A stretch of 64,000 nt of DNA from Glutamicibacter halophytocola (GTDB lineage: Bacteria > Actinomycetota > Actinomycetes > Actinomycetales > Micrococcaceae). Below the pieces are notes generated by a model. The model was not told the DNA's origin. It saw only the letters and a list, made by a program, of their open reading frames with translations, and did no database searches. Position numbers and translations under genes: made by a program. Below are positions 37,048 through 60,840 of this stretch, in pieces (the first letter of the stretch is position 1; every line of letters begins with the position of its first letter). The stretch spans positions 2,232,001 through 2,296,000 of the forward strand of contig NZ_CP012750.1 in assembly GCF_001302565.1 (NCBI RefSeq), in the 5' to 3' direction.

Positions 37048-39672
37048 ATGGCTCGTAAGAAGTCTGAAGAGATTCCAGAGGATTTCGTTGAAAATATCGT
37101 CGATATCGACGTCACCAATGAAATGGAATCCTCCTTCTTGGAGTACGCCTATTCCGTCATCTATTCACGTGCCCTTCCCGACGCCCGTGACGGACTGAAA
37201 CCAGTACAGCGTCGAATTCTTTTTCAGATGTCCCAAATGGGGCTGCGCCCCGAAAAGGGCCATGTCAAGTCCGCCCGCGTGGTGGGCGAAGTCATGGGAA
37301 AGCTGCACCCGCATGGCGACGCCGCCATTTATGATGCGATGGTTCGACTGGCCCAGGACTTCTCGCTGCGCTTGCCGCTCATTGATGGGCACGGCAACTT
37401 CGGCTCGCTGGATGATGGACCTGCGGCGCCACGCTATACCGAGGCGCGACTGGCCGCATCCGCTGTGGCGATGACGGCGAACCTGGATGAAGACGTCGTG
37501 AACTTCATTCCGAACTACGACAACCAGTTCATGCAGCCCGAGGTGCTCCCGGCGGCTTTCCCCAACCTCTTGGTTAACGGAACCACCGGCATCGCCGTGG
37601 GCATGGCAACGAACATGGCACCGCATAACCTGGGCGAAGTGATCGCGGCCGCGCGGCATCTGCTCATTGAGCCCGAAGCCACGGTCGAAGAACTGATGAA
37701 GTTCATCCCGGGTCCTGACTTGCCGTCAGGCGGAAGCATCATCGGCCTCGACGGCGTTAAAGATGCGTACCGCACCGGGCGGGGCCTGTTCCGCACCCGA
37801 GCTACGGTAGAGCTGGAAAAGGTCTCGGCACGCAAGTCGGCGCTGGTGGTCACCGAGCTGCCGTACGGCGTAGGGCCTGAAAAGGTGATCGAAAAGATCA
37901 AGGACGGCGTCAACAACAAGAAGATCGTCGGCATCTCTGATGTTGTTGATCTGACTGATCGCCACCACGGCCTGAAGCTGGTCATTGAGCTGAAGAATGG
38001 CTTCAACGCCAATGCGGTGCTGGCTAGCCTGTTCAAGTACACCCCCATGGAGGATTCCTTCGGCATCAATAACGTTGCCCTGGTCAATGGGCAACCGCGG
38101 ACCATGGGATTGCGTGAACTGCTCACGGTCTATGTCGACCACCGGCTTGATGTCGTGCGCCGACGCACCGTTTACCGTTTGGCCAAGCGTGAAGACCGCC
38201 TGCATCTGGTCGAGGGCTTGCTGATCGCCATCGTAGATATTGATGACGTTATCGCCATCATCCGTTCGTCGGAACAGACCAATGAAGCACGCCAGAGGCT
38301 GATGACGGTCTTTGACCTCAGCGAGCCACAGGCAAACCATATTCTGGAACTGCGCCTGCGCCAGCTGACCAAATATTCCAAGCTTGAGCTGGAAACCGAA
38401 GCAGAGCAGCTGCGCGAGGAAATCGAGAAGCTGCGAGCCATCCTGGAATCCGACCAATTGCTGCGTTCTGTGGTCTCCGAGGAGTTGGAAGCCATGGCGG
38501 AGACCTTCGGCACGCCTCGTCGGACAAAACTCCTCAAGTCCGCGCAGCTCGCTCCGCTCAAGGGCACCGCCTTGCCGGAAGCGGTCGGCAGCGGCAAGCA
38601 GGTGAAGCTGACTATGGAGATTTCCGATAGCGCGTGCTGGGCGCTGCTCTCAGCCACCGGCCAGATCGCTCGCACCCACGATCGCGCCCAGCTGGACTTC
38701 GCCTCAGCCCGGATTAAGCACGATGTGCTGATCTCCCAGGTGGCCTCCAGTGCCCGCGGCGAAATCGGCGCACTAACCAGCACCGGCAGGATCATGCGCA
38801 TTTCCCTGATTGACGTGCCCGTGCTGCCTGAGTCCCACGGGTTCCCGCAGCTGGCACAGGGTGTTCCGGTGGCCGAGTTCCTGAAACTTCCCAAGAATGA
38901 AACGGTCATCGCGCTCGTTCCATTAAATGAGGTCCTGGCCATTGGTACCCGTCAGGGCGTCGTGAAGCGAGTGACCCCGGAGTACCCGTTGAACCGTGAC
39001 GAGTTCGAGGCCATTACGCTCAAGGACGGCGATGCGGTGGTTGCCGCTGCGGTGGCTGGAGAAGACGACGAATTGGTCTTCCTCACCCGCGGTGCGCAAC
39101 TGCTGCGATTCCCTGCCTCTGCTGTGCGCCCGCAGGGGCGCACCGGCCGCGGCATGGCCGGAATCAAGCTCAGCGCCGATGACCACGTCATCTTCTTTGG
39201 TGTCGTCCCCCCGTCGGCACAGAATGCCGTAGTGGCGACCATTGCTGCGGGTTCGCAAACCTTGCCTGGAACTTCTGGCCAGTCGGTGAAGCTCACCGAG
39301 TTTGCCGAGTTCCCCGCCAAGGGGCGTGCCACGGCCGGTGTTCGCGCCCACCGTTTCATCAAGGGTGAAGACCACCTGCAGCTTGCCTTTGCCGGGCAGG
39401 GACCAGCGCGAGCTAGTTCAAGTGCCGGTGTGGTTCGGGCCTTGCCGACAGAGTTCGGAAAGCGTGATGGATCCGGGGCACCGCTTGCACAGACCGTCAA
39501 CATCCTCGGCGGTTCTTTGAGCGCTGCCGAATCATCCGCTGCCCAGGCACCGGACTCACCTGCCGACGCACCAGTGGGCAACGCAGTTCAAGACGAGCAT
39601 CCGAAGGCAGCCCCGGCGTTCAACCCGGGCGAAGATACCTTGCCCTTTGACGACGGCGGAGTAATTCTCTAG
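37048..39672 (+). CDS. parC: DNA topoisomerase IV subunit A (type IIA topoisomerase, ParC)
   Basis: An 874-residue type IIA topoisomerase A subunit that breaks and rejoins DNA. The catalytic tyrosine is Tyr130 in PRYTEARLA; the quinolone region reads [17 protein letters not shown], with Ala92 where E. coli GyrA has Ser83 and Asp96 at the Asp87 position. The C-terminal beta-pinwheel contains QGRTGRG, a degenerate GyrA box, so decatenation rather than supercoiling is expected. The parE gene 8 kb away and the Streptomyces hrdB-parE-parC order support topoisomerase IV over gyrase. GAAGGA lies 11 nt before the ATG. The last 60 residues are low-complexity. Confidence 0.9.
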
Positions 39673-39742: not shown

Positions 39743-42700
39743 TCAAGCAGCAACCTTGGCTTCCAGCTGGATGCGTTCATGGCACTGTTCGGCCAATCGC
39801 TCATCGTGGGTAATGAGCACGACCGTGCGATCTTGCAGAGCACGGCGCAGCGTATCCATCAGTTCAGCGGCCTCGTCTGCTCCCAAGTGCGCTGTGGGCT
39901 CATCGAGCAGAACCACTTGATGTCCGCCAAGCAGGGCACGGGCAACGGCCATCTTGCAGCGCTGGCCTCCTGAAAGATGATGTCCGCCAGAACCAATCCT
40001 TGTTTCCAGCCCCTCGGCTTGCTGCTGATACCAGGAGTGCAATCCTACGTGCTGTAGCACCTCGACAAGTTGCGCATCCTCGCGTTGCTCCCCTTCGGCT
40101 ACGCCGAGCATCAGGTTGCGACGTATCGAGGAATCAAACAGGTGGGCTTCCTGCGGGCACCACGCCACGGAGTTCAGCTTGGCCCCGTGAACCGGACTGC
40201 GCATGCCGCGTTCGTCAATGAGGCTCAAGGTGCCGGCGCGCACCGGCAAGGCCCCAAGCAATGCGGTCATAAGAGTGGACTTCCCGGAACCGGAAGGACC
40301 AACGATTGCGGTCCATCGGCGTTGCGGAATGGTCGCGGTCAGCTTGTCGAGCACATTTGGTCCATGGCCGTACCCCAGGCTGACTTCGTCCAGCTCGAAT
40401 CCTGCAACCTCCGGGGTGAGACTGGCAGCGTGATCGTTTTCGCGGCTTTGCTGGTCCTGGGTGGATAGCCCGTGTTGCTCCAGAAGCCCGGTCAATTGTT
40501 TCAAGGCTTGCCCTTGCTGGACCGCCAGCAGGGCGCTGGTGGCGCTATCACCCAAGGCCAGGCTGAGCAGCACGGCCAACGCAGTCAACGATGCCGAGCT
40601 TTGGGAAACCGCGGCCACCACAATCGCCATCAGCACGCTGAGCAATACGGCGAGCGCAGGAGCACTCCCCTGGCCAAGCGCGTGGCGTTGCGCGTCCTTG
40701 GTATTTTCCTGTTCAGCGCTATTGACTGAAGCGAGAGCCGCGTTGAGGGAACCGTTAATCCGCAATGCTGATTTATGCCGCAAGATTCCCAGAACGGATT
40801 CGTTCATGGCCATTCGATGGGTCATTTGGCGTACCAGATGCTGTCCTTCAATTCTCTGGACCAGCCATCTAACGGGGAAAGCCAGGAGAATGCCAGCGAT
40901 GACCGCTGTCCATCCGAATTCCGGCTGGATGAGGAACAAGGCTACGGTTGCGACGCCCCAGAGGGATATTGCTGAGATTGGCGGGAAAACCACTCGCGCA
41001 AGCTGGTCACGCAGTTCATCCACTTCCGCCAGGAAGAAACGCAATACGACAGACGACCGGCTAAAAAGTCCCCAGCGGGCAGGGTCGGCCACCATGGCGT
41101 TCCAAATTTTTTCGCGAAGCTTCCCGGCGTATTCGAGGACTGCATCGTGAATGGCCAGCTGTTCCAAGTAGCGGAAAGCTGCTCTGCCGATTCCCAGGGC
41201 GCGGACCATGACAAAAGCGACGCTCAAGTGGAGGATCGGTGGCTGATAGCTGGCTTCAACAATCAGCCATCCGCTCAATGCCGCCAAGGCGACGGCACAC
41301 AAGACACTGATCGTTCCCCACGCCACGGCTTTGGGCGCGCTCCTGTAGCCTCTGAGCAGTTCTCGACGAGGGTTAAACCGCTGTCGGCTCTGATCCAATG
41401 CCGTGGAGGGCACTGCATCTTGAATGCCGCTAGCCCGATGATCGGATTCCTGGCCCGACCATGCTGGTTTCGGCGTGATACTGGCTCCACGTCCCTGCGA
41501 GTTGTCGATCAATGGATCATGGCTTGCAATGAGAACTGCGCAGCGTGCAGGGATTTCGCTGAGCAATTGGCGTACCACCGACGCGTTATCGTCATCAAGG
41601 TGAGCCGTCGGCTCATCAGCCAGGAGCAAGGTGCATTGGGGGTCGCTGTGCAGGCGTGCCACGGCCCGCAGTACTTCTAATCGGCGTAGTTCGCCGGGCG
41701 AGTATTCGGCGATTTTGCGCCCAAGCATGTGATCCATCGACAGGCGTTCTGCCAGCTCACTGACAAGTCCGGGCCTTGGTGTGTGAATGTCTTGAGCTAG
41801 TTGCTCTTCCCCGGTCTCCGCATCAAAACGCGGATGCTGATTGATCAAGGCTATGGAACCCGAAGTTCGAATGGTGCCTTGAACCAATTCTGGATCAAAA
41901 GCATTGTCGCTGCAGCTTGCTTCCGCGATTAGCGTGATCAGAGTTGTCTTGCCCGTACCGCTAGACGTAGCGATGATCTTCCGCTCCCCCGCACCCAGGC
42001 TGAGGTTCAGGTTTTTGCATATTTGTTCATTGCCTTCGTATCGCACACTGAGATTCTCAATTTCCAGAACCTTGGATGCCCGCGCTGGCGAGGCACCGAT
42101 AGTGGCAGTGCTTGGAGCAGCCGCAGTCATATTCTGGTACCGCTGATAGGCTGCCAGGCCGTCGTCGGCCGCGTGATAGGCAGACCCGACTTCACGAAGG
42201 GCCGAAAAGAGCTCCGGCGCCAGAATCAGGATGGTAAATCCTGCGGACAGTTCCATCGAACCGTTGACGAGTCTCACGCCGATGAAAACCGCTAGCACTG
42301 CTACAGAGAGCGTTGAAATAAGTTCCAGCCAGAAGCTGGACATAAACACGGTCCTGAGATTGGCCATGGTGGCAATACGGTACTTCTCGCCGACCTGCGC
42401 GATGGCGTTGCCTTGTTGACGTGCCCGGCCCAGGCCTAGGAGCGCAGGTAGCCCTTGGGCTAGTTCATAGAGCTGGCTCGCCAACCTGTCGAGGGATGAT
42501 TGCGATTCTTTGAGCGTGTCTTGCGTATGCATTCCAATGAGCGCCATGAACACCGGAATCAAGGGAACCGTCAGTAGCAGTATCACCGCGCTGATCCAGT
42601 CGAGTCGCAGAATGTAGATGCCGAGCAAAAGCGGAACAGCAGCGGCACCAATGAGAGCTGGAATGAACTTTGTGAAGTAATCGTCCAGCTTCTCAATTCC

Positions 42701-43057
42701 ATGGCTGGCCAGTGTGGCTACCACAGGGATTGAGTTTTGCGTTGCCGGAACAATCACAGGGTGCGAGGCCTCGGAGCTTAGCAGCTGCATCCGCATCCGT
42801 TCCTTGGCTCCCATCCCCATACGCCTCGCGCCCGCGTTTAATCCCCACGCGGCGAGTGCGCGCAGTATGGCGCCAGCGCCTGCAACGAGCAAAAGTTGGG
42901 GATCGCTCTTTGCACCGGAGGCCATGGTCGCAATCCACGTTCCCAACGAGTAGGCGACAAGCACCAGCCCCAAGACCTTGAAGACTGAAAAACACGTCAA
43001 CACAGCGAATTGGCGTGGTGAAATCAGTTCTTTTGGAAGGAATCTTGGGGCTGGCAT
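39743..43057 (-). CDS. cydDC: Fused CydD-CydC thiol reductant ABC exporter
   Basis: A 1104-residue fusion of both halves of the CydDC exporter, needed in E. coli for cytochrome bd assembly by exporting glutathione/cysteine or handling heme. Each half has about six transmembrane helices (residues 15-290 and 575-845) and an ATPase domain. The second ATPase is canonical: GPSGSGKST (Lys926), LSGGQ, LLDEPTAH. The first is not: its Walker A is TSSGTGKT (Lys370) with the first glycine lost, and its signature is SPGEL (453-457), although the catalytic DEPTAH (481-486) is kept. It is 25 nt after cydB. Fused CydDC is common in actinobacteria. Confidence 0.92.
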   Translation of the reverse strand: MPAPRFLPKELISPRQFAVLTCFSVFKVLGLVLVAYSLGTWIATMASGAKSDPQLLLVAGAGAILRALAAWGLNAGARRMGMGAKERMRMQLLSSEASHPVIVPATQNSIPVVATLASHGIEKLDDYFTKFIPALIGAAAVPLLLGIYILRLDWISAVILLLTVPLIPVFMALIGMHTQDTLKESQSSLDRLASQLYELAQGLPALLGLGRARQQGNAIAQVGEKYRIATMANLRTVFMSSFWLELISTLSVAVLAVFIGVRLVNGSMELSAGFTILILAPELFSALREVGSAYHAADDGLAAYQRYQNMTAAAPSTATIGASPARASKVLEIENLSVRYEGNEQICKNLNLSLGAGERKIIATSSGTGKTTLITLIAEASCSDNAFDPELVQGTIRTSGSIALINQHPRFDAETGEEQLAQDIHTPRPGLVSELAERLSMDHMLGRKIAEYSPGELRRLEVLRAVARLHSDPQCTLLLADEPTAHLDDDNASVVRQLLSEIPARCAVLIASHDPLIDNSQGRGASITPKPAWSGQESDHRASGIQDAVPSTALDQSRQRFNPRRELLRGYRSAPKAVAWGTISVLCAVALAALSGWLIVEASYQPPILHLSVAFVMVRALGIGRAAFRYLEQLAIHDAVLEYAGKLREKIWNAMVADPARWGLFSRSSVVLRFFLAEVDELRDQLARVVFPPISAISLWGVATVALFLIQPEFGWTAVIAGILLAFPVRWLVQRIEGQHLVRQMTHRMAMNESVLGILRHKSALRINGSLNAALASVNSAEQENTKDAQRHALGQGSAPALAVLLSVLMAIVVAAVSQSSASLTALAVLLSLALGDSATSALLAVQQGQALKQLTGLLEQHGLSTQDQQSRENDHAASLTPEVAGFELDEVSLGYGHGPNVLDKLTATIPQRRWTAIVGPSGSGKSTLMTALLGALPVRAGTLSLIDERGMRSPVHGAKLNSVAWCPQEAHLFDSSIRRNLMLGVAEGEQREDAQLVEVLQHVGLHSWYQQQAEGLETRIGSGGHHLSGGQRCKMAVARALLGGHQVVLLDEPTAHLGADEAAELMDTLRRALQDRTVVLITHDERLAEQCHERIQLEAKVAA

Positions 43058-43082: not shown

Positions 43083-44108
43083 TTATTTAACGATTGAAGT
43101 CACGTGGTGGGTTTCAGGAATATGTTCCTCACGCAGCCGTTTGCGGAATACCCAGTAGCTCCACGCCTGATAGGCCAAAACCAATGGCACGCCAAAAGCA
43201 GCCACGATGCTCATCAGCTTGAGCGTGTAGGGAGTGCTGGATGCGTTGTCAACGGTTAGATCAAACGCCGAGTCCAGCGTTGAAGGCAGTACCACTGGAT
43301 AGGCCGCGACAAATATCGCTGCAACTGCTGCCAGGAGCATGACTCCGAGCGCGATGAAGGATTTTCCTTCTTTTCCAGACCGGCCCATGACACCTGCGGC
43401 GATCAGCGCCACAACTGACAGCGCTAGGCATACCCAGGCGATTGTTGAATTGTTGTTGGCGAGCACCCAGACAGCCCAAAGCAGCATTGGAAGTGCAGCT
43501 ACCGGCAGCCAGCGTCCCACAAGCTTTCCGGCTTCCTCCCGTACTGGTCCATCGGTTTTCAACCGCAGGAAAGCCAGTGCATGAATCCAGCAGAACGCCA
43601 CCACGGCGACTCCACCGAGCACCGCATGCCACGTGAGCCAAGCGAAAGCGCCACCGATGCGGTCCCCATTTTGGTTCAGCGGCAGGCCCAGCGTGGTGGA
43701 CGCGAGCAAAGCGCCGACGCCAAATGCTGCAACTAGGGAGCCCAGGCCCAATGCGAGATCCCATGCCCTGCGGGTCAGCGCAGTGATTGCCTTGCCTCGA
43801 TATTCGATTGCAACCGCACGGAAGATCAAGGCGATCAGCACTATGGTGAGCGGAATGTAGAGCGCAGAGAAGAGCGAAGCGTACCAATGCGGGAAGGCGG
43901 CGAAAGTGGCACCACCGGCAGTAAGCAGCCATACTTCGTTGCCGTCCCATACCGGGCCGATGGTATTGAGCAGCAAACGCTTTCGTTTTTCGGTGCTCTT
44001 ACCGAGGCCGATAAGCATGCCTACGCCGAGGTCGAAGCCCTCAAGAAAGAGGTAGCCACACCAAAGTATCGCAATGACAATGAACCAGAGTGTTGGTAGC
44101 CATTCCAT
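43083..44108 (-). CDS. cydB: Cytochrome bd oxidase subunit II
   Basis: A 341-residue membrane protein with eight to nine hydrophobic helices. It has the family features WYGCYLFLEGFDLG-like segment near residue 20 (here WCGYLFLEGFDLGVG), GPVWDGNEVWL, and the C-terminal YQAWSYWVFRKRL. With CydA it forms the quinol:O2 oxidase of high oxygen affinity. It begins 23 nt after cydA, in one operon with it and cydDC. Confidence 0.95.
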   Translation of the reverse strand: MEWLPTLWFIVIAILWCGYLFLEGFDLGVGMLIGLGKSTEKRKRLLLNTIGPVWDGNEVWLLTAGGATFAAFPHWYASLFSALYIPLTIVLIALIFRAVAIEYRGKAITALTRRAWDLALGLGSLVAAFGVGALLASTTLGLPLNQNGDRIGGAFAWLTWHAVLGGVAVVAFCWIHALAFLRLKTDGPVREEAGKLVGRWLPVAALPMLLWAVWVLANNNSTIAWVCLALSVVALIAAGVMGRSGKEGKSFIALGVMLLAAVAAIFVAAYPVVLPSTLDSAFDLTVDNASSTPYTLKLMSIVAAFGVPLVLAYQAWSYWVFRKRLREEHIPETHHVTSIVK

Positions 44109-44131: not shown

Positions 44132-45733
44132 CTAGTAGGCGAATGCCAAGACGTCATCGTCGTCATTGCCATCGTGTGGTGTTGCGCCGGTATCATCGTG
44201 TTTTTCTGCTGATTCGAGTTCCGGCATGGCAGAAGCTACTCCGCCGCGAATATAACGGGTCAAAAGCACCAGTTCCACAACGAGCAGGACGGCGTAGATC
44301 GAAGTCAGGGAGATCAGCGAGAACAAAAGTTCTCCAGCGCTTACCGTGGGCGAGACAGAGGCCGCCGTGTACATGAAGACCTGGTCAACCCCTCCCATTT
44401 GAGGGTTGGGTGCCACGGTGAATGGCTGACGGCCCATTTCGGTGAAGATCCACCCGGTGGCGTTGGCTCCGAAGGGAGCCGCAATTCCCAATACTGCGAG
44501 TCGGGAGATCCATTTATTATCTGGAACGGTTCCCTTGCGCGTGATCCATAACGCGATAGCGGCAGCAACTGCGGAGAGCCCGCCGAAGGTGATCATCAAG
44601 CGGAAACCCCAGTAGGTAACTTCCATGACTGGCAGGTAGTCGATTTCTTGCCCTGCATACTGGCCGAAGGATTCATCCTCGGGGTAGTATTTTCCGTATT
44701 TTTCCTGGTATTCCGGAATCAGTGAGTTGACGCCTTTAATTTCGGTGGTGAAATCTCCGTTGGCAAGGAAGGAAAGAATTCCAGGGATTTCAAATACTGC
44801 CACGACATCGTCGCAGTCGGTTGAGCCATGAGCAGTGATATCGCCCAGTGACAGGACCGAGAAACCCGTCCCGTCGTGGCATGCAGCTTCGGCAGAGGCC
44901 ATTTTCATCGGTTGCTGCTCGAACATGAGCTTGGCCTGTTCGTGCCCGGTCAACGCGACGCCGAGGAATGCGACCACGGCAACGCTTGCACCGATCCGCA
45001 AGGATTTGATCCATACTTGATAGTCGGTCTTGTCGCGGTTCTTCCCCCGGCTCAGATCCTCGCCAATGATCACTCGGCCGTTTGCATCAACTGTGTCGAT
45101 TCCAGCTTTGCGACGCCGGTAAAGGTGGAACCAGGAGATCCCAAGCAAGAATCCGCCTGCGACGGCGAACGCCCCGAAAAGTGTGTGCGGGAAGGTGACC
45201 AGCGCTGTGTTGTTGGTGAATACTGCCCAGGCATCGGTCATTACGGCGCGACCATCGATAATCTGGGTGCCGACCGGATGTTGCATCCACGAATTCGCGA
45301 CGAGAATGAAATACGCCGAGACCATGGTAGCCAGCGACGCGCACCAGATAGTTGCCAGATGCAGGCGCTTCGGCAATTTTTTCCAGCCAAAAATCCAGAG
45401 CCCGAGGAAGGTGGATTCTACGAAGAATGCGAGGAGCGCCTCCATGGCCAGTGGCGCACCGAATACGTCGCCGACATAACGGCTGTATTCGCTCCAAGCC
45501 ATCCCGAACTGGAATTCCTGCACGATGCCGGTGGCCACGCCCATGATGAAGTTGATCAGAAACAACTTGCCCCAGAATTTTGTCATCCGCAGCCAGTGTT
45601 CGTTACCGGTGCGATGCCACATAGTTTGCAAGACGGCGACTGTTAGTCCCAGCCCGATGGTCAGCGGAACCATCAGGAAGTGGTAGACCGTGGTTATGCC
45701 AAACTGCCAGCGGGCAATTTCTAGTGCATCCAT
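44132..45733 (-). CDS. cydA: Cytochrome bd oxidase subunit I
   Basis: A 533-residue subunit carrying hemes b558, b595 and d; it oxidises (mena)quinol and reduces O2 to water at the cytoplasmic membrane. Heme ligands correspond to His18 in TVYHFLMVP and His183 in FPHTLFGAFA; the quinol-site GRQPF motif is present. The periplasmic Q-loop holds two cysteines, Cys285 and Cys307, a pair like the disulfide reported in mycobacterial bd oxidase. GAGGA lies 4 nt before the ATG. An inverted repeat (45775-45791) lies 41 bp upstream. Confidence 0.95.
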   Translation of the reverse strand: MDALEIARWQFGITTVYHFLMVPLTIGLGLTVAVLQTMWHRTGNEHWLRMTKFWGKLFLINFIMGVATGIVQEFQFGMAWSEYSRYVGDVFGAPLAMEALLAFFVESTFLGLWIFGWKKLPKRLHLATIWCASLATMVSAYFILVANSWMQHPVGTQIIDGRAVMTDAWAVFTNNTALVTFPHTLFGAFAVAGGFLLGISWFHLYRRRKAGIDTVDANGRVIIGEDLSRGKNRDKTDYQVWIKSLRIGASVAVVAFLGVALTGHEQAKLMFEQQPMKMASAEAACHDGTGFSVLSLGDITAHGSTDCDDVVAVFEIPGILSFLANGDFTTEIKGVNSLIPEYQEKYGKYYPEDESFGQYAGQEIDYLPVMEVTYWGFRLMITFGGLSAVAAAIALWITRKGTVPDNKWISRLAVLGIAAPFGANATGWIFTEMGRQPFTVAPNPQMGGVDQVFMYTAASVSPTVSAGELLFSLISLTSIYAVLLVVELVLLTRYIRGGVASAMPELESAEKHDDTGATPHDGNDDDDVLAFAY

Positions 45734-45774
45734 TGAATCCTCAATTTATTGCGTGTTGGGATCTTCCAAGACTT

Positions 45775-45791
45775 TTCTACGTTCCGTAGAA
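45775..45791. promoter_or_regulatory. Operator candidate 1 (cydA side), BlaI-type inverted repeat
   Basis: TTCTACG-TTC-CGTAGAA is a perfect 7-3-7 inverted repeat 41 bp upstream of the cydA start. A second near-copy lies upstream of blaI, so both are probably bound by the same protein. Confidence 0.65.
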
Positions 45792-45998
45792 ATGCCTTCA
45801 AGTATCACCATAGACCATTTCGACAGCTTGTAGAAGTCGCGGGAGATTGATCCCAGCCACATCGCGAAGACTCGGTCCCACCAGAAGAAAGCAAGCACCA
45901 GCCCGAAGGGCCCTTACGGGTTCGGCATCCGTTCGCACTGCAGGTAGAAGCCGGCCATTGGCCCGGCGACGGCAAGCGGAAAGCCGAATCTGTCACTC

Positions 45999-46015
45999 TT
46001 TTACGTGTCGTAGAA
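45999..46015. promoter_or_regulatory. Operator candidate 2 (blaI side), BlaI-type inverted repeat
   Basis: TTTTACG-TGT-CGTAGAA matches copy 1 at 13 of 14 arm positions and lies 101 bp upstream of blaI, overlapping the -35 position of the TACAAT (46034-46039) promoter. This fits autorepression. Confidence 0.62.
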
Positions 46016-46116
46016 ATCTCGAACAAAAATCGCTACAATAGGTGTTTCAAGCAGTGTGCCGAGGGCTAGTCCTGGAGCATGCGGCGAAAGTACTAATGCA
46101 AGTGAGGTAAGACCTA

Positions 46117-46488
46117 GTGGCCAGCCTTGGCGATCTAGAACGTTCCGTCATGGATTTGCTGTGGGATTCCACAGAACCGCTCACCGCGAACGACCTTCGC
46201 GATGAGCTCGCGGCACTTGGCGCCGATGCGAAAGAACTCGCAGTTACAACGGTGCTCACTGTGCTTGCGCGCCTTGAAAAGAAGGGCTTGGTTGAGCGCG
46301 AGCGCTCTAGCCGCCCACACCGCTACGCTGCTTCATCCTCACGAGAAGACCACACCGTTGGCCTTCTTAACGAAGCACTGGGCACAGCCCAGGATCGCGA
46401 AGCAGTTCTTGCTCGATTCATCGGTGGAATCTCCGCAGATGAGGCAGCTTCATTGCGTGCTATCTTGGACTCAGTAAAGTCCGCATAA
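46117..46488 (+). CDS. blaI: BlaI/MecI/CopY family transcriptional repressor
   Basis: A 123-residue winged-helix repressor. Residues 1-75 hold the DNA-binding domain (LGDLERSVMDLLW, then TTVLTVLARLEKKGLVERE) and residues 80-123 the dimerisation helices. Such repressors bind palindromes and are removed by cleavage through a partner M56 protease, which is the next gene, 23 nt downstream. The GTG start has GAGG about 10 nt upstream. The adjacent cyd operon and the two matching inverted repeats suggest it controls cytochrome bd as well as itself; there is no beta-lactamase gene nearby. In M. tuberculosis the homologous BlaI is reported to affect respiration-linked genes. Confidence 0.9.
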   Translation: MASLGDLERSVMDLLWDSTEPLTANDLRDELAALGADAKELAVTTVLTVLARLEKKGLVERERSSRPHRYAASSSREDHTVGLLNEALGTAQDREAVLARFIGGISADEAASLRAILDSVKSA

Positions 46489-46511: not shown

Positions 46512-47474
46512 GTGCTTCTCACCTCATATTTCCTAGCGGCGTTGGCCATCGCATTAGCCTGGCCGACGCCGTTGGCCTTATCAAAGGCTAAATGGACCAC
46601 TCGTGCGCCTGTCCAGGCTGTACTCCTATGGCAAGCCATCGCTTTGGGCGGTGGCCTGTCCATGATCGGCTCGATGCTGGTCTGGGGACTGACTCCATTG
46701 GGCGACGATCTCATCTCGGCCTTGCACGGCAGCTGGCGGCTTCTCACAGGCGATCCGACCGTACGCTACCCCGGTGTCGTCCATCTTTTTGCGCTGAGCA
46801 CGGCGCTTCTATTCGGGTTGCATTTGGTGTTGACCCTGATTCGCGCCGCCTGGAGAACTTCTAGGCAGCGGGCAAAACACCGGCACCTCCTGCGATTGCT
46901 CAGCAACCCGTCGGAAACTCGCCCCAACACCTTGGTCATTGATCACGATATGCCTGTAGCCTACTGTGTTCCGGGCATCTCGCAATCCGTGACTGTTCTC
47001 TCCCGTGGACTGATCACGCAACTCACTGCCGAAGAACAACAGGCAGTCATCTCCCACGAGCGCTCGCATCTGGATCAACGGCATGACTTGCTAATTCTGG
47101 CTTTCACAGCATGGAACGAAGCCCTGCCTTGGCTGCCAACGTCTAAGCTCTCGCTGGAGGCAGTGCGCCAGCTAATTGAAATGCTGGCCGATGATAAGGC
47201 CCTGGAAAAGGTAAACCGCCAAACCCTCCTGAAGGCCATCATTGCGGTAGCCACCGCCGCAGCAGACGCTGATGGAGTATCCGGCCAGCGAAACGCATCG
47301 AACGCAGAGATGGTGGGGATGCCCGGCGGTGAAGTTTCGTCACGACGCTTGCAACGCTTGCTGACTCCAGTTGCTCCGCTAGGACGGGCCTCACGCTATC
47401 TCGTATTAGCTTGCACGATTCTCTTGCTGGTCTGCCCGACCGTCCTGCTCGTGGCGCCGCGGCTGCTTGCGTAA
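46512..47474 (+). CDS. M56 family (BlaR1-like) membrane metallopeptidase without sensor domain
   Basis: A 320-residue membrane zinc protease. Helices lie at about residues 2-18, 36-58, 90-112 and 298-317; the zinc motif is HERSH (182-186) on the cytoplasmic loop between helices 3 and 4. BlaR1/MecR1 proteins are about 600 residues with a C-terminal penicillin-binding sensor; that domain is absent here, so the signal is something else. It should inactivate BlaI when triggered. The GTG start has GGGGA 5 nt upstream. It ends 34 nt before a terminator. Confidence 0.88.
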   Translation: MLLTSYFLAALAIALAWPTPLALSKAKWTTRAPVQAVLLWQAIALGGGLSMIGSMLVWGLTPLGDDLISALHGSWRLLTGDPTVRYPGVVHLFALSTALLFGLHLVLTLIRAAWRTSRQRAKHRHLLRLLSNPSETRPNTLVIDHDMPVAYCVPGISQSVTVLSRGLITQLTAEEQQAVISHERSHLDQRHDLLILAFTAWNEALPWLPTSKLSLEAVRQLIEMLADDKALEKVNRQTLLKAIIAVATAAADADGVSGQRNASNAEMVGMPGGEVSSRRLQRLLTPVAPLGRASRYLVLACTILLLVCPTVLLVAPRLLA

Positions 47475-47561: not shown

Positions 47562-49670
47562 CTAGACATCGATTCGTTCGCGTTCCAGATCGTCCGCACC
47601 GTCAATAATGAATTTCTTGCGCGGCGCAACATCAGATCCCATAAGCAAATCAAAAACTTCTTCAGCAGCCTGGGCGTGTTCGATTCCCACTCGGCGCAGC
47701 ATTCGATGACGCTGGTCCATGGTAGTCTCTGCCAGCTGATCGGCATCCATTTCGCCAAGGCCCTTGTAGCGCTGAATCGGCTCCTTGTATCGCTTGCCGT
47801 CCTTTTCCAACTGAGCAAGCAGCTTGTTCATCTCTGCTTCTGAATAGGTGTACACCACTTCATTTTGTTTCGATCCAGGATTGATCACTTCGATGCGATG
47901 CAATGGCGGCACAGCAGCATAGACACGACCATGCTCAATCATCGGTCGCATGTAGCGGTAGAAGAGAGTGAGCAACAGCGTGCGGATATGTGCACCGTCC
48001 ACGTCGGCATCGGTCATGAGAATAATTTTTCCGTACCGGGCTTGCTCGATATCGAAGCTTCGGCCCGAGCCAGCACCAATGACCTGGATCATCGCGGCAC
48101 ATTCCGCATTGGAGAGCATATCCGAGATGGAGGCCTTCTGGACGTTCAGGATCTTACCTCGGATGGGCAACAACGCCTGGTACTCGCTGGAACGAGCTAG
48201 GCGTGCCGTGCCCAGGGCGCTGTCACCTTCGACGATGAACAGTTCAGACTTGCCGACTTCCTTGCTCCGGCAGTCCAACAATTTTGTGGGAAGCGTTGAG
48301 GATTCCAAAGCGGTTTTCCGCCGCTGAGTTTCCTTGTGCATCCGGGCGGAGACACGAGATTTCATCTCGTTAACCACCTTTTCCAACAAAGTGGAAGCTT
48401 CAGCCTTTTCCGCACGCTTGCTGGAGCCCAGCCGGTCGTTAAGCGCCTTCTCGACTACTTTGGAGACGATCTGGCGTACCTGCGGAGTGCCCAGAATTTC
48501 TTTCGTCTGCCCCTCGAACTGCGGCTCGGCGAGACGGACCGTAAGAACTGCAGTCAACCCGGCTAGAACATCGTCCTTTTCTAGCTTGTCCTTCTGCCCG
48601 AACTTGAGCTTTCGGGCATTTGCCTCGACGTTTTTGCGGAATGACTTGAGCAGCGCCTGCTCAAATCCGGCGCTATGTGTACCGCCCTTGGGCGTGGCGA
48701 TAATGTTGACGAAACTGCGGATCGAAGTGTCATAGCCGATCCCCCACCGTAGCGCGACGTCGACCTCGCACACGCGCTGGACGTCTTCGATGTGGCTGCG
48801 ACCCTTGTCGTCAATGACAGGGACCTTCTCATGGAAAGAGCCGCTTCCCTGAAAACGCCAAATATCAGTTACTGGCGAGTCGCTGCTGAGATATTCCGCA
48901 AACTCGCTGATGCCACCGTCGTGCTGGAAAATCTCTTCATGCGGTCCATCAGCACCGGGTGTATCCGGCAGGCCCCGTTCGTCACGAAGCGTGATGCGCA
49001 GGCCGGGAACCAAGAACGAGGTCTGCCGTGCCCGGTCTTGCAGGTCCTTGTACGAGAACTTCGCATCGGGGGTGAAGATATGATTATCCGCCCAGTACCG
49101 AATGCGTGTACCGGTTACTCCACGCTTAGCTTTGCCAATGACTTCTGGGGACGTTGCTGCCTCGTAGGGAGTGAATGCTGCTTCAGCCTTCTTCCGCCCC
49201 TTGTCGGCAAAATTTCCTGGCTCGCCACGACGGAACTGCATGCCGTATGTTTTTCCACCGCGGTCCACTTCCACATCTAGACGTGCGGAAAGTGCGTTAA
49301 CGACCGAAGCACCGACGCCGTGAAGGCCTCCGGAGGCGCTATACGATCCCCCACCAAATTTTCCACCAGCGTGAAGCTTGGTGAATACGACTTCCAGGCC
49401 ACTCAGTCCAGTTTTAGGTTCGATATCCACGGGAATACCGCGGCCATCATCTCGGACTTCAACGGAGCCATCGGCATGCAGGACTACGCCAATCGCCTGG
49501 CCGAAACCGCCCAATGCTTCGTCAACCGAGTTATCGATGATCTCCCAGAGGCAATGCATCAAGCCTCGCGAGTCCGTGGATCCGATGTACATGCCGGGAC
49601 GTTTGCGGACCGCTTCCAATCCTTCAAGGACTGAAAGGTGTCGAGCGTTGTAATTGTCGGATGAAGCCAC
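47562..49670 (-). CDS. parE: DNA topoisomerase IV subunit B (type IIA topoisomerase, ParE)
   Basis: A 702-residue ATPase subunit. The GHKL domain has EGLEAVRKRPGMYIG, DDGRGIPVD and GLHGVGASVVNAL; the TOPRIM domain has VEGDSALGTA and DADVDGAHIRTLL. EGDSALGTA, in place of the EGDSAGGSA of GyrB, is what I recall for actinobacterial ParE. It partners ParC (37048-39672). The GTG start has AAAGG 5 nt upstream. It is near sigA, as in Streptomyces, supporting topoisomerase IV rather than gyrase. Confidence 0.92.
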   Translation of the reverse strand: MASSDNYNARHLSVLEGLEAVRKRPGMYIGSTDSRGLMHCLWEIIDNSVDEALGGFGQAIGVVLHADGSVEVRDDGRGIPVDIEPKTGLSGLEVVFTKLHAGGKFGGGSYSASGGLHGVGASVVNALSARLDVEVDRGGKTYGMQFRRGEPGNFADKGRKKAEAAFTPYEAATSPEVIGKAKRGVTGTRIRYWADNHIFTPDAKFSYKDLQDRARQTSFLVPGLRITLRDERGLPDTPGADGPHEEIFQHDGGISEFAEYLSSDSPVTDIWRFQGSGSFHEKVPVIDDKGRSHIEDVQRVCEVDVALRWGIGYDTSIRSFVNIIATPKGGTHSAGFEQALLKSFRKNVEANARKLKFGQKDKLEKDDVLAGLTAVLTVRLAEPQFEGQTKEILGTPQVRQIVSKVVEKALNDRLGSSKRAEKAEASTLLEKVVNEMKSRVSARMHKETQRRKTALESSTLPTKLLDCRSKEVGKSELFIVEGDSALGTARLARSSEYQALLPIRGKILNVQKASISDMLSNAECAAMIQVIGAGSGRSFDIEQARYGKIILMTDADVDGAHIRTLLLTLFYRYMRPMIEHGRVYAAVPPLHRIEVINPGSKQNEVVYTYSEAEMNKLLAQLEKDGKRYKEPIQRYKGLGEMDADQLAETTMDQRHRMLRRVGIEHAQAAEEVFDLLMGSDVAPRKKFIIDGADDLERERIDV

Positions 49671-60405: not shown

Positions 60406-60458
60406 AGCGACGATCGCCCCCTGCTGAGGAATCAGCAGGGGCGATCGTCGCTTTTCTA
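60406..60458 (+). terminator. Rho-independent terminator of sucB
   Basis: A long stem of about 20 bp (60406-60427 with 60432-60452, one bulged C) is followed by TTTTCT. Confidence 0.88.
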
Positions 60459-60477
60459 CGTTCAGTCGAATTTAGAT

Positions 60478-60483
60478 TAGGCT
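60478..60483 (+). promoter_or_regulatory. Candidate -10 box of a leaderless transcript for the small membrane protein
   Basis: TAGGCT lies 6 nt before the ATG at 60490 (an overlapping TAGATT ends at 60478). CTTTTCTACGTTC at 60451-60463 upstream is identical to 13 bases of operator candidate 1 of cydA. Confidence 0.4.
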
Positions 60484-60489
60484 AGGACT

Positions 60490-60840
60490 ATGGAATTCCT
60501 GAAACTCATTTTGGTATTTGTGCATGTACTTGGTGCAGCCGCGATTTTCGGTGGCTGGCTAGCTAACTTCAAGACCCCTACCGTCAGTGTCTGGCAGTGG
60601 TACGGTGCCCTCGTTCAGCTGGTGACCGGATTGGCACTCGTGGGTATTGCTGAAGCCGGCACTGACCCAGTCAACCACGCAAAGATTGGCGTGAAGCTGG
60701 TCATCGCCATCGTGATCGCTGTAGCTGCGTTTATCGGCCGCAAGAAGATCAAGGCTGGCGAAGAAGTATCGACGGGCATTGCTCACGCTGTTGGAGGCAT
60801 GGCCTTCATCAATATCGCGGTGGCGACCCTCTGGTCCTAA
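60490..60840 (+). CDS. Small hypothetical membrane protein, four helices
   Basis: A 116-residue protein with hydrophobic helices at about residues 5-24, 37-55, 66-84 and 98-114. His12 in helix 1 and His66-region/His99 residues in or near membranes resemble heme-binding positions of small cytochrome-like proteins, but no known motif is complete. I do not recognise a named family. It is flanked by two terminators, so it is a single-gene unit. Confidence 0.7.
   Translation: MEFLKLILVFVHVLGAAAIFGGWLANFKTPTVSVWQWYGALVQLVTGLALVGIAEAGTDPVNHAKIGVKLVIAIVIAVAAFIGRKKIKAGEEVSTGIAHAVGGMAFINIAVATLWS

What the first reader, a model, noticed from the sequence alone, without database searches (positions are those of the whole stretch)
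45734..46488. Matching inverted repeats suggest a BlaI repressor controls cytochrome bd
TTCTACG-TTC-CGTAGAA (45775-45791) sits 41 bp upstream of cydA and TTTTACG-TGT-CGTAGAA (45999-46015) sits 101 bp upstream of blaI, the arms matching at 13 of 14 positions. Both overlap plausible promoter boxes. BlaI-family repressors bind such CTAC...GTAG palindromes, and no beta-lactamase gene is nearby. The simplest reading is a BlaI/M56 switch that autoregulates and also gates cydAB-cydDC, that is, a proteolysis-released respiratory repressor.
Basis: partly seen in the sequence, partly recalled or inferred. Interest (0 to 1): 0.75.

Follow-up and report, generated by a model that had tools for sequence, protein, structure and literature searches.

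The report
BlaI switch controlling bacterial respiration genes
A repressor family best known for controlling penicillin resistance sits beside the cytochrome bd oxidase genes in this soil bacterium and most of its relatives examined, and shared DNA target sites suggest that it controls respiration genes instead.

Summary
The two inverted repeats are real and exactly placed. The window is from Glutamicibacter or a close relative. Of 124 family genomes with both genes, 114 have cydA and blaI divergent and adjacent. Their gaps hold CTAC-N5-GTAG 252 times in 113 of 114, against 0.4 in shuffles, mostly as TTCTAC-N5-GTAGAA. The site goes with the regulator: before cydA it is in 121 of 122 BlaI+ genomes and 0 of 11 BlaI- genomes, with contrasts inside two genera. 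Further sites lie before hmp, hemQ, ctaE, ctaB, suf/ABC and the ATP synthase operon; the last is a gel-shift-shown BlaI target in mycobacteria. Best reading: a BlaI/M56 respiratory regulator that controls itself and cydABDC. Binding by BlaI is inferred from co-evolution; release by M56 proteolysis, and its signal, only from family knowledge. A link of BlaI to cytochrome bd and ATP synthase is already in print for M. tuberculosis. The conserved divergon, the operator and the wider predicted regulon were not found in print in the searches made.

The parts
44132..45733 (-). cydA, cytochrome bd subunit I
   Evidence: PF01654, 502 bits
43083..44108 (-). cydB, cytochrome bd subunit II
   Evidence: PF02322, TIGR00203 above cut-off
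39743..43057 (-). cydDC as one ORF of 1104 aa
   Evidence: CydD and CydC NCBIfam models both above cut-off
45775..45791 (.). operator 1, TTCTACGTTCCGTAGAA, cydA-proximal, exact
   Evidence: counterparts in relatives
   Evidence: kept in 8 of 8 genus genomes
45999..46015 (.). operator 3, TTTTACGTGTCGTAGAA, blaI-proximal, one mismatch
   Evidence: kept in 8 of 8 genus genomes
46034..46039 (+). TACAAT, likely -10 box of the blaI promoter, 18 bp after operator 3 (inference)
   Evidence: sequence; TA.a.T box recurs at this distance in the family logo
46117..46488 (+). blaI, Penicillinase_R repressor, 123 aa
   Evidence: PF03965, 74.6 bits; the only protein over the cut-off in the genome
46512..47474 (+). 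M56 membrane protease, 320 aa, no penicillin-binding domain
   Evidence: PF05569; HERSH motif
60454..60470 (.). TTCTACGTTCAGTCGAA, one-mismatch site before a small membrane protein gene
   Evidence: exact sites at the same place in G047 and G058
60490..60840 (+). 116-aa membrane protein, candidate further target
   Evidence: relatives recognised by eye in L349 and L341; no Pfam match for the L349 relative

Best explanation
The BlaI protein of this genome (46117-46488) binds as a dimer to TTCTAC-N5-GTAGAA operators. Three of them lie between the divergent cydA and blaI genes, where they would block both promoters, so BlaI represses cydABDC and its own blaI-M56 operon. The M56 membrane protease (46512-47474), which lacks the penicillin-binding sensor, would cut BlaI when respiration fails or is poisoned; BlaI then leaves and cytochrome bd is made. 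Single, often weaker copies of the operator would extend the control to flavohemoglobin (hmp), heme supply (hemQ, ctaB, suf/ABC) and the main respiratory chain (ctaE, ATP synthase). Shown by computation: the operators, their conservation, co-loss with BlaI before cydA, gene order, and recurrence at these targets. Inferred: direct BlaI binding, repression, M56 cleavage and the signal. The confidence given is for BlaI as the cognate factor of the cydA-blaI sites; for M56 cleavage I would say 0.6, for the respiratory signal 0.45.
For: cydA and blaI divergent and adjacent in 114 of 124 family genomes with both. CTACN5GTAG 252 times in 113 of 114 gaps against 0.4; 243 of 252 with the outer TT/AA. 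Before cydA: 8 of 8 genomes with a non-adjacent BlaI hit have the site, 0 of 11 without BlaI do; the blaI of G004, which lies on another contig, has a site of its own. Contrasts within genera: g6, G061 and G103 BlaI+ with site, G036 and G120 BlaI- without; g15, G044 BlaI+ with site, G108, G124, G139 BlaI- without. Exact sites genome-wide: mean 5.1 in 55 BlaI+ genomes (control 0.44), 1 in all in 6 BlaI- genomes. blaI of two genomes without a CydA hit (G012, G057) has the site. One protein over the Penicillinase_R cut-off in the own genome. ATP synthase operon: site in 11 of 18 BlaI+ and 0 of 12 BlaI- genomes, the same operon that BlaI binds and represses in mycobacteria (PMC12565901, passages). 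HExxH in M56 in the rows printed.
Against: No binding, expression or cleavage data exist for this organism. The 11 BlaI-less cydA genomes come from 3 genera (g3 six, g6 two, g15 three), so the Fisher p overstates independence. BlaI hits in genus g12 (4 genomes) are only 39-43% identical and may not be orthologues, yet cydA keeps a site there; in G109 and G145 'not adjacent' may be a contig break. G090 has BlaI but only a 1-mismatch site. ATP synthase: the BlaI+ members of g6 and g15 tested (G061, G103, G044) lack the site too, so its absence in BlaI- genomes there may follow the clade, not the regulator. ctaE, ctaB and ATP synthase sites mostly carry one mismatch and are missing in 12 of 30, 16 of 30 and 7 of 18 loci; loss with BlaI was not tested at ctaE, ctaB or hmp. 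The ctaE sites all have a GWWWY centre, so another constraint may act there. Of 18 own-genome sites 8 have no such target, equal to the control count of 8. Outside the family 7 of 21 loci with the same gene order lack CTACN5GTAG. No cleavage site was examined.
Confidence: 0.85

Rival explanations
1. Another DNA-binding protein, not BlaI, binds the palindromes, and blaI is only a neighbour under the same control.
For: No binding data. Cytochrome bd genes have other regulators in other bacteria (Rex in Streptomyces, listing of PMC5355995). The hmp sites lie beside an Rrf2-family regulator gene.
Against: Before cydA the site is absent in 0 of 11 BlaI-less genomes' favour (none has it) and present in 8 of 8 with BlaI elsewhere. 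Exact sites are almost gone genome-wide where BlaI is gone. blaI keeps its site where there is no CydA hit. Sites at hmp, hemQ and others are in genomes with unrelated neighbouring regulators.
Confidence: 0.08
2. BlaI binds the sites, but M56 does not cut it here; BlaI itself senses the signal, or M56 acts by binding or on another substrate.
For: No cleavage data. The BlaR1 sensor domain is absent. PMC5473688 (passages) reports control of the M. tuberculosis blaR-blaI locus by WhiB4, a redox regulator.
Against: M56 follows blaI in all of the loci checked: 8 of 8 family loci and 21 of 21 order loci, 20 of 20 class loci, with HExxH in the rows printed.
Confidence: 0.35
3. It is a classical beta-lactam resistance switch whose operators happen to lie near cydA.
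For: BlaI/M56 family names; the operator core TAC-N5-GTA resembles those recalled for BlaI, MecI and CopY.
Against: No beta-lactamase domain in the 19 nearby ORFs scanned; none of the 40 sites annotated lies at a gene recognised as a beta-lactamase (8 unassigned); no penicillin-binding sensor.
Confidence: 0.03
4. The repeats are RNA hairpins, terminators or a conserved promoter box without a repressor.
For: They are palindromes, and they overlap likely promoter boxes.
Against: Tandem copies 21-26 bp apart in 91 of 139 neighbouring pairs, symmetric arms with free centres, and co-loss with BlaI.
Confidence: 0.02

Closest known systems
BlaI (Rv1846c) / BlaR (Rv1845c) of Mycobacterium tuberculosis
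   Same: BlaI is the only sequence relative with a solved structure found (2g9w, E 8e-22; that 2g9w is Rv1846c is recalled). BlaR there lacks the beta-lactam sensor, and BlaI is reported to bind the cytochrome bd and ATP synthase promoters (PMC5473688, passages, citing Sala 2009, which was not read). BlaI binds and represses Rv1303, co-transcribed with the atp genes (PMC12565901, passages).
   Different: There it also controls the beta-lactamase blaC. Here blaI-M56 is divergent from cydA with three operators between, and sites extend to hmp, hemQ, ctaE, ctaB and suf/ABC.
BlaI/BlaR1 and MecI/MecR1 of staphylococci
   Same: A small winged-helix repressor with an M56 protease gene beside it; the protease activates cleavage of BlaI (PMC5473688 introduction, passage).
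   Different: No penicillin-binding sensor domain here, no beta-lactamase target found, and a respiratory target set.
CopY copper repressor
   Same: CopY_TcrY model matches weakly (26.9 bits against a cut-off of 122); a TAC...GTA palindrome (recalled).
   Different: Far below the family cut-off; operators at respiratory genes.

Membership tests
BlaI/MecI (Penicillinase_R) repressors | Penicillinase_R domain | tested here: met
   PF03965, 74.6 bits, cut-off 22.6
BlaI/MecI (Penicillinase_R) repressors | palindromic operator at its own promoter | tested here: met
   113 of 114 gaps; also in G012 and G057, which have no CydA hit. Binding itself not tested
BlaI/MecI (Penicillinase_R) repressors | neighbouring M56 protease with HExxH | tested here: met
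   PF05569; HERSH
BlaI/MecI (Penicillinase_R) repressors | cleavage by M56 on induction | not testable with these tools
   needs protein experiments
BlaR1 beta-lactam sensors | extracellular penicillin-binding domain | tested here: not met
   only M56 and M48 matches in 320 aa
beta-lactamase regulators | beta-lactamase gene as target | tested here: inconclusive
   none in 19 nearby ORFs scanned; the whole genome was not searched for beta-lactamases
mycobacterial BlaI respiratory regulon | operator at the ATP synthase operon | tested here: met
   one-mismatch site about 1 kb before atpB in the own genome and in 11 of 18 BlaI+ genomes
mycobacterial BlaI respiratory regulon | operator at cytochrome bd | tested here: met
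CopY/TcrY copper repressors | match over the family cut-off | tested here: not met
   26.9 bits against 121.95

The most novel reading that the evidence does not exclude
BlaI/M56 is an old actinobacterial switch for oxidative phosphorylation: one repressor, released when respiration or heme supply fails, jointly controls both terminal oxidase branches, ATP synthase, heme and Fe-S supply and NO defence. Control of beta-lactamase would then be a later use of the same parts.
Probability: 0.4. Interest if true: 0.82.

Novelty: new variant of a known kind. Interest (0 to 1): 0.68.

Why it matters
BlaI/BlaR1-type pairs are commonly annotated as beta-lactam resistance switches. Here, across a family and in the loci examined from its order, such a pair is tied to cytochrome bd and to a conserved operator, and further sites point to ATP synthase, bcc-aa3, heme and NO-defence genes. 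That gives a precise, testable operator and predicted regulon in soil bacteria for a question left open in mycobacteria: what a BlaR protease without a penicillin sensor responds to.

Tried and rejected
Hairpin or terminator: rejected, because the sites come in tandem 21-26 bp apart (91 of 139 neighbouring pairs), lie before starts and vanish before cydA where BlaI is missing. Mere conservation of a non-coding block: rejected, because the arms stay while centre, position and spacing vary. Core promoter element: an overlap is likely, but a promoter box alone explains neither the palindrome nor the co-loss. The first motif tried, TCTACGNNNCGTAGA with 2 mismatches, was too loose (126 matches, control 303) and was dropped. 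An exact palindrome near HU-like genes (own L358; L322, L353) stays unexplained; in the own genome it directly follows a stop codon. ORFs that look like truncated haemoglobins (L343, L347) matched no Pfam or NCBIfam model, so that name is recalled and not used. HU and the small membrane proteins were recognised by eye.

Literature: Sala et al. 2009 is not in the held library and was not read. Passages were seen of PMC5473688, PMC5874750, PMC8265638, PMC12565901, PMC10581053, PMC7924339 and PMC8765290, PMC11561320, PMC9618640. In PMC10581053, PMC8765290 and PMC9618640 the term matched other words; PMC11561320 names blaI only as induced in a katG mutant. No cydA-blaI divergon appeared in the listings of searches (titles and abstract starts; open-access papers only).

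Selection in counts: the 40 non-cyd sites annotated (L318-L357) were picked by me from 10 genomes among the places listed; one search listed only part of its places. Of the 40: hmp 7, hemQ region 7 (hemQ by profile in L318 and L330, the others by clustering), small membrane protein beside MatE 5 (MatE by profile in L352), Pyridox_ox_2 4 (profile in L332), YceI 2 (profile in L331), sufR-like/ABC 2 (profile in L321), sucB-side membrane protein 2, HU neighbourhood 2, COX3-qcrC 1, unassigned 8. Of the 18 own-genome sites with up to one mismatch: 3 in the cydA-blaI gap, 1 each at hmp, ctaE, ctaB, suf/ABC, ATP synthase and 60454, 1 by HU, and 8 with no such target. Dropped before the cydA test: G042 and G066 (partial, distant CydA hits). 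The loci are the 30 best-scoring, hence biased to near relatives; the 20 class-level loci were hand-picked from the BlaI rows.

Full report
What is there. The window lies in Glutamicibacter or a close relative: its CydA is 95% identical to that of Arthrobacter sp. NIO-1057 and 91% to that of Glutamicibacter nicotianae. On the minus strand run cydA (44132-45733), cydB (43083-44108) and one ORF of 1104 aa with CydD and CydC parts (39743-43057). Divergently run blaI (46117-46488, Penicillinase_R 74.6 bits) and an M56 protease of 320 aa without a penicillin-binding domain (46512-47474). BlaI is the only protein over the Penicillinase_R cut-off in the genome; one more place scores just below it (21.8 against 22.6 bits).

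The observation. A genome scan with TTCTACN5GTAGAA, one mismatch allowed, adds a third site in the same gap, 45819-45835. All three are present in all 8 genus genomes examined, with changed centres. In the own genome 3 exact and 15 one-mismatch sites stand against 8 control matches.

Conservation. In 149 family genomes BlaI was found in 131 (E up to 1e-8) and CydA in 135 (E up to 1e-30). 124 have both, and 114 of these have them divergent with a gap between hits of 134-450 bp. The 114 gaps were fetched. CTACN5GTAG occurs 252 times in 113 of them against a mean of 0.4 in 20 shuffles. Counting [CT]TACN5GTA[AG], 65 gaps have two sites, 42 three, 6 one and 1 none; the last, G090, has a one-mismatch site. 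Of the 252, 243 read TTCTACN5GTAGAA, where 0.3% would be expected from base composition. The first and last centre bases are R in 77% and Y in 95%. Neighbouring sites are 21-26 bp apart in 91 of 139 pairs, about two helical turns.

Who binds. This was tested by absence of the regulator. About 400 bp before cydA were fetched from 19 further genomes and scanned. Of 8 with a BlaI hit that is not adjacent, 8 have the site; of 11 without a BlaI hit, 0 have it. With the adjacent set this makes 121 of 122 against 0 of 11. The 11 belong to three genera (g3 six, g6 two, g15 three). In g6 and g15 other species have BlaI and the site (G061, G103, G044), so two contrasts are within a genus. In G109 and G145 'not adjacent' may be a contig break, and in genus g12 (4 genomes) the BlaI hits are only 39-43% identical. 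The blaI of G004, on another contig than cydA, has a site before it. blaI of two genomes without a CydA hit (G012, G057) also has one, which speaks for autoregulation independent of cyd. Genome-wide, 55 BlaI+ genomes have a mean of 5.1 exact sites (minimum 1, control 0.44), and 6 BlaI- genomes have 1 in total.

Wider regulon. In three genus genomes, the own one included, an exact site precedes hmp, a flavohemoprotein gene beside an Rrf2 regulator gene (L003, L222, L228). Of 40 further exact sites picked from 10 other genomes, 7 are at hmp and 7 at hemQ with protoporphyrinogen oxidase or ferrochelatase nearby; Pyridox_ox_2, YceI and a small membrane protein beside MatE recur; 8 are unassigned. 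ctaE (cytochrome c oxidase subunit III) has a one-mismatch site 135-147 bp before the match in 18 of 30 loci; the centre is always GWWWY, so another constraint may act there. ctaB has a site with up to one mismatch in 14 of 30 loci, with varying centre and position. The ATP synthase operon has a one-mismatch site about 1 kb before atpB in 11 of 18 BlaI+ genomes (G012 has one elsewhere) and in 0 of 12 BlaI- genomes even at two mismatches. But the BlaI+ members of g6 and g15 in that test (G061, G103, G044) lack it as well, so this absence may follow the clade. In the own genome the hmp site is exact; ctaE, ctaB, suf/ABC and ATP synthase have one-mismatch sites; no hemQ site was found among the 18 listed. 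8 of the 18 own sites have no such target, the same number as the control. A fourth site inside the window (60454-60470) lies 19 bp before a 116-aa membrane protein gene (60490-60840), whose relatives in G047 and G058 have exact sites at the same place.

Depth. In the order, 21 of 21 loci outside the family (the best-scoring, of 54 such genomes with a hit) have cydA divergent from blaI and M56; 14 of 21 contain CTACN5GTAG in the gap. In loci of families f7 and f14 the site reads TACTAC...GTAGTA, sometimes with another spacing. Of 20 hand-picked loci of the class outside the order, 9 have cydA within 3 kb of blaI (three of them distant CydA relatives, 27-28% identical), and 20 have M56 beside blaI. 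The recognition-helix region differs between groups with TTCTAC (RLE, after TTVL or similar) and those with TACTAC (mostly RLA or RLG, after TTVM); this is suggestive only, from few families.

Mechanism. The cydA-proximal site is followed by a T that makes a TAGAA.T box; the blaI-proximal operator ends 18 bp before TACAAT (46034-46039), the place of a -35 box. Both placements suit repression. M56 keeps HExxH in the rows printed. That BlaR1 activates cleavage of BlaI is known for S. aureus (PMC5473688, introduction passage) and is inferred here. The signal is unknown; since the predicted targets are oxidases, heme genes, NO defence and ATP synthase, failure of respiration or heme supply is my guess.

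Known work. PMC5473688 (passages) states, citing Sala 2009, that BlaI of M. tuberculosis binds promoters of cytochrome bd and ATP synthase genes, and that mycobacterial BlaR lacks the sensor domain. PMC12565901 (passages) reports gel-shift binding and repression at Rv1303, co-transcribed with the ATP synthase genes. PMC5874750 and PMC8265638 (passages) also put atp genes in the BlaI regulon. So the kind is known. The divergon, its three-operator layout, the co-loss test and the hmp, heme and bcc-aa3 sites were not found in print in the searches listed under Tried and rejected.

Noticed in passing
window 60454-60840: One-mismatch BlaI-type site 19 bp before a 116-aa membrane protein gene downstream of a 2-oxoacid dehydrogenase E2 gene; relatives in G047 and G058 have exact sites there.
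   Followed up: partly
window 39743-43057: cydD and cydC are one ORF of 1104 aa.
   Followed up: no
window 37048-39672 and 47562-49670: A GyrA/ParC-like and a GyrB/ParE-like topoisomerase gene flank the cyd-blaI region on either side.
   Followed up: no
L358 (G000:C1, around 2874018): The exact palindrome TTCTACGCGAAGTAGAA recurs unchanged, centre included, in 5 of the 7 genus genomes; HU-like ORFs lie beside it in the own genome and it follows a stop codon.
   Followed up: partly
G012 and G042 (genus g13): These genomes have the most exact sites of the 61 (15 and 13) although they lack a full-length CydA hit.
   Followed up: partly
L343 and L347: Exact sites directly before small ORFs that look by eye like group III truncated haemoglobins, but match no Pfam or NCBIfam model.
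   Followed up: partly
L224, L230, L233, L235 (genus genomes): Exact sites before a Pyridox_ox_2-like gene in four genus genomes other than the own one.
   Followed up: partly
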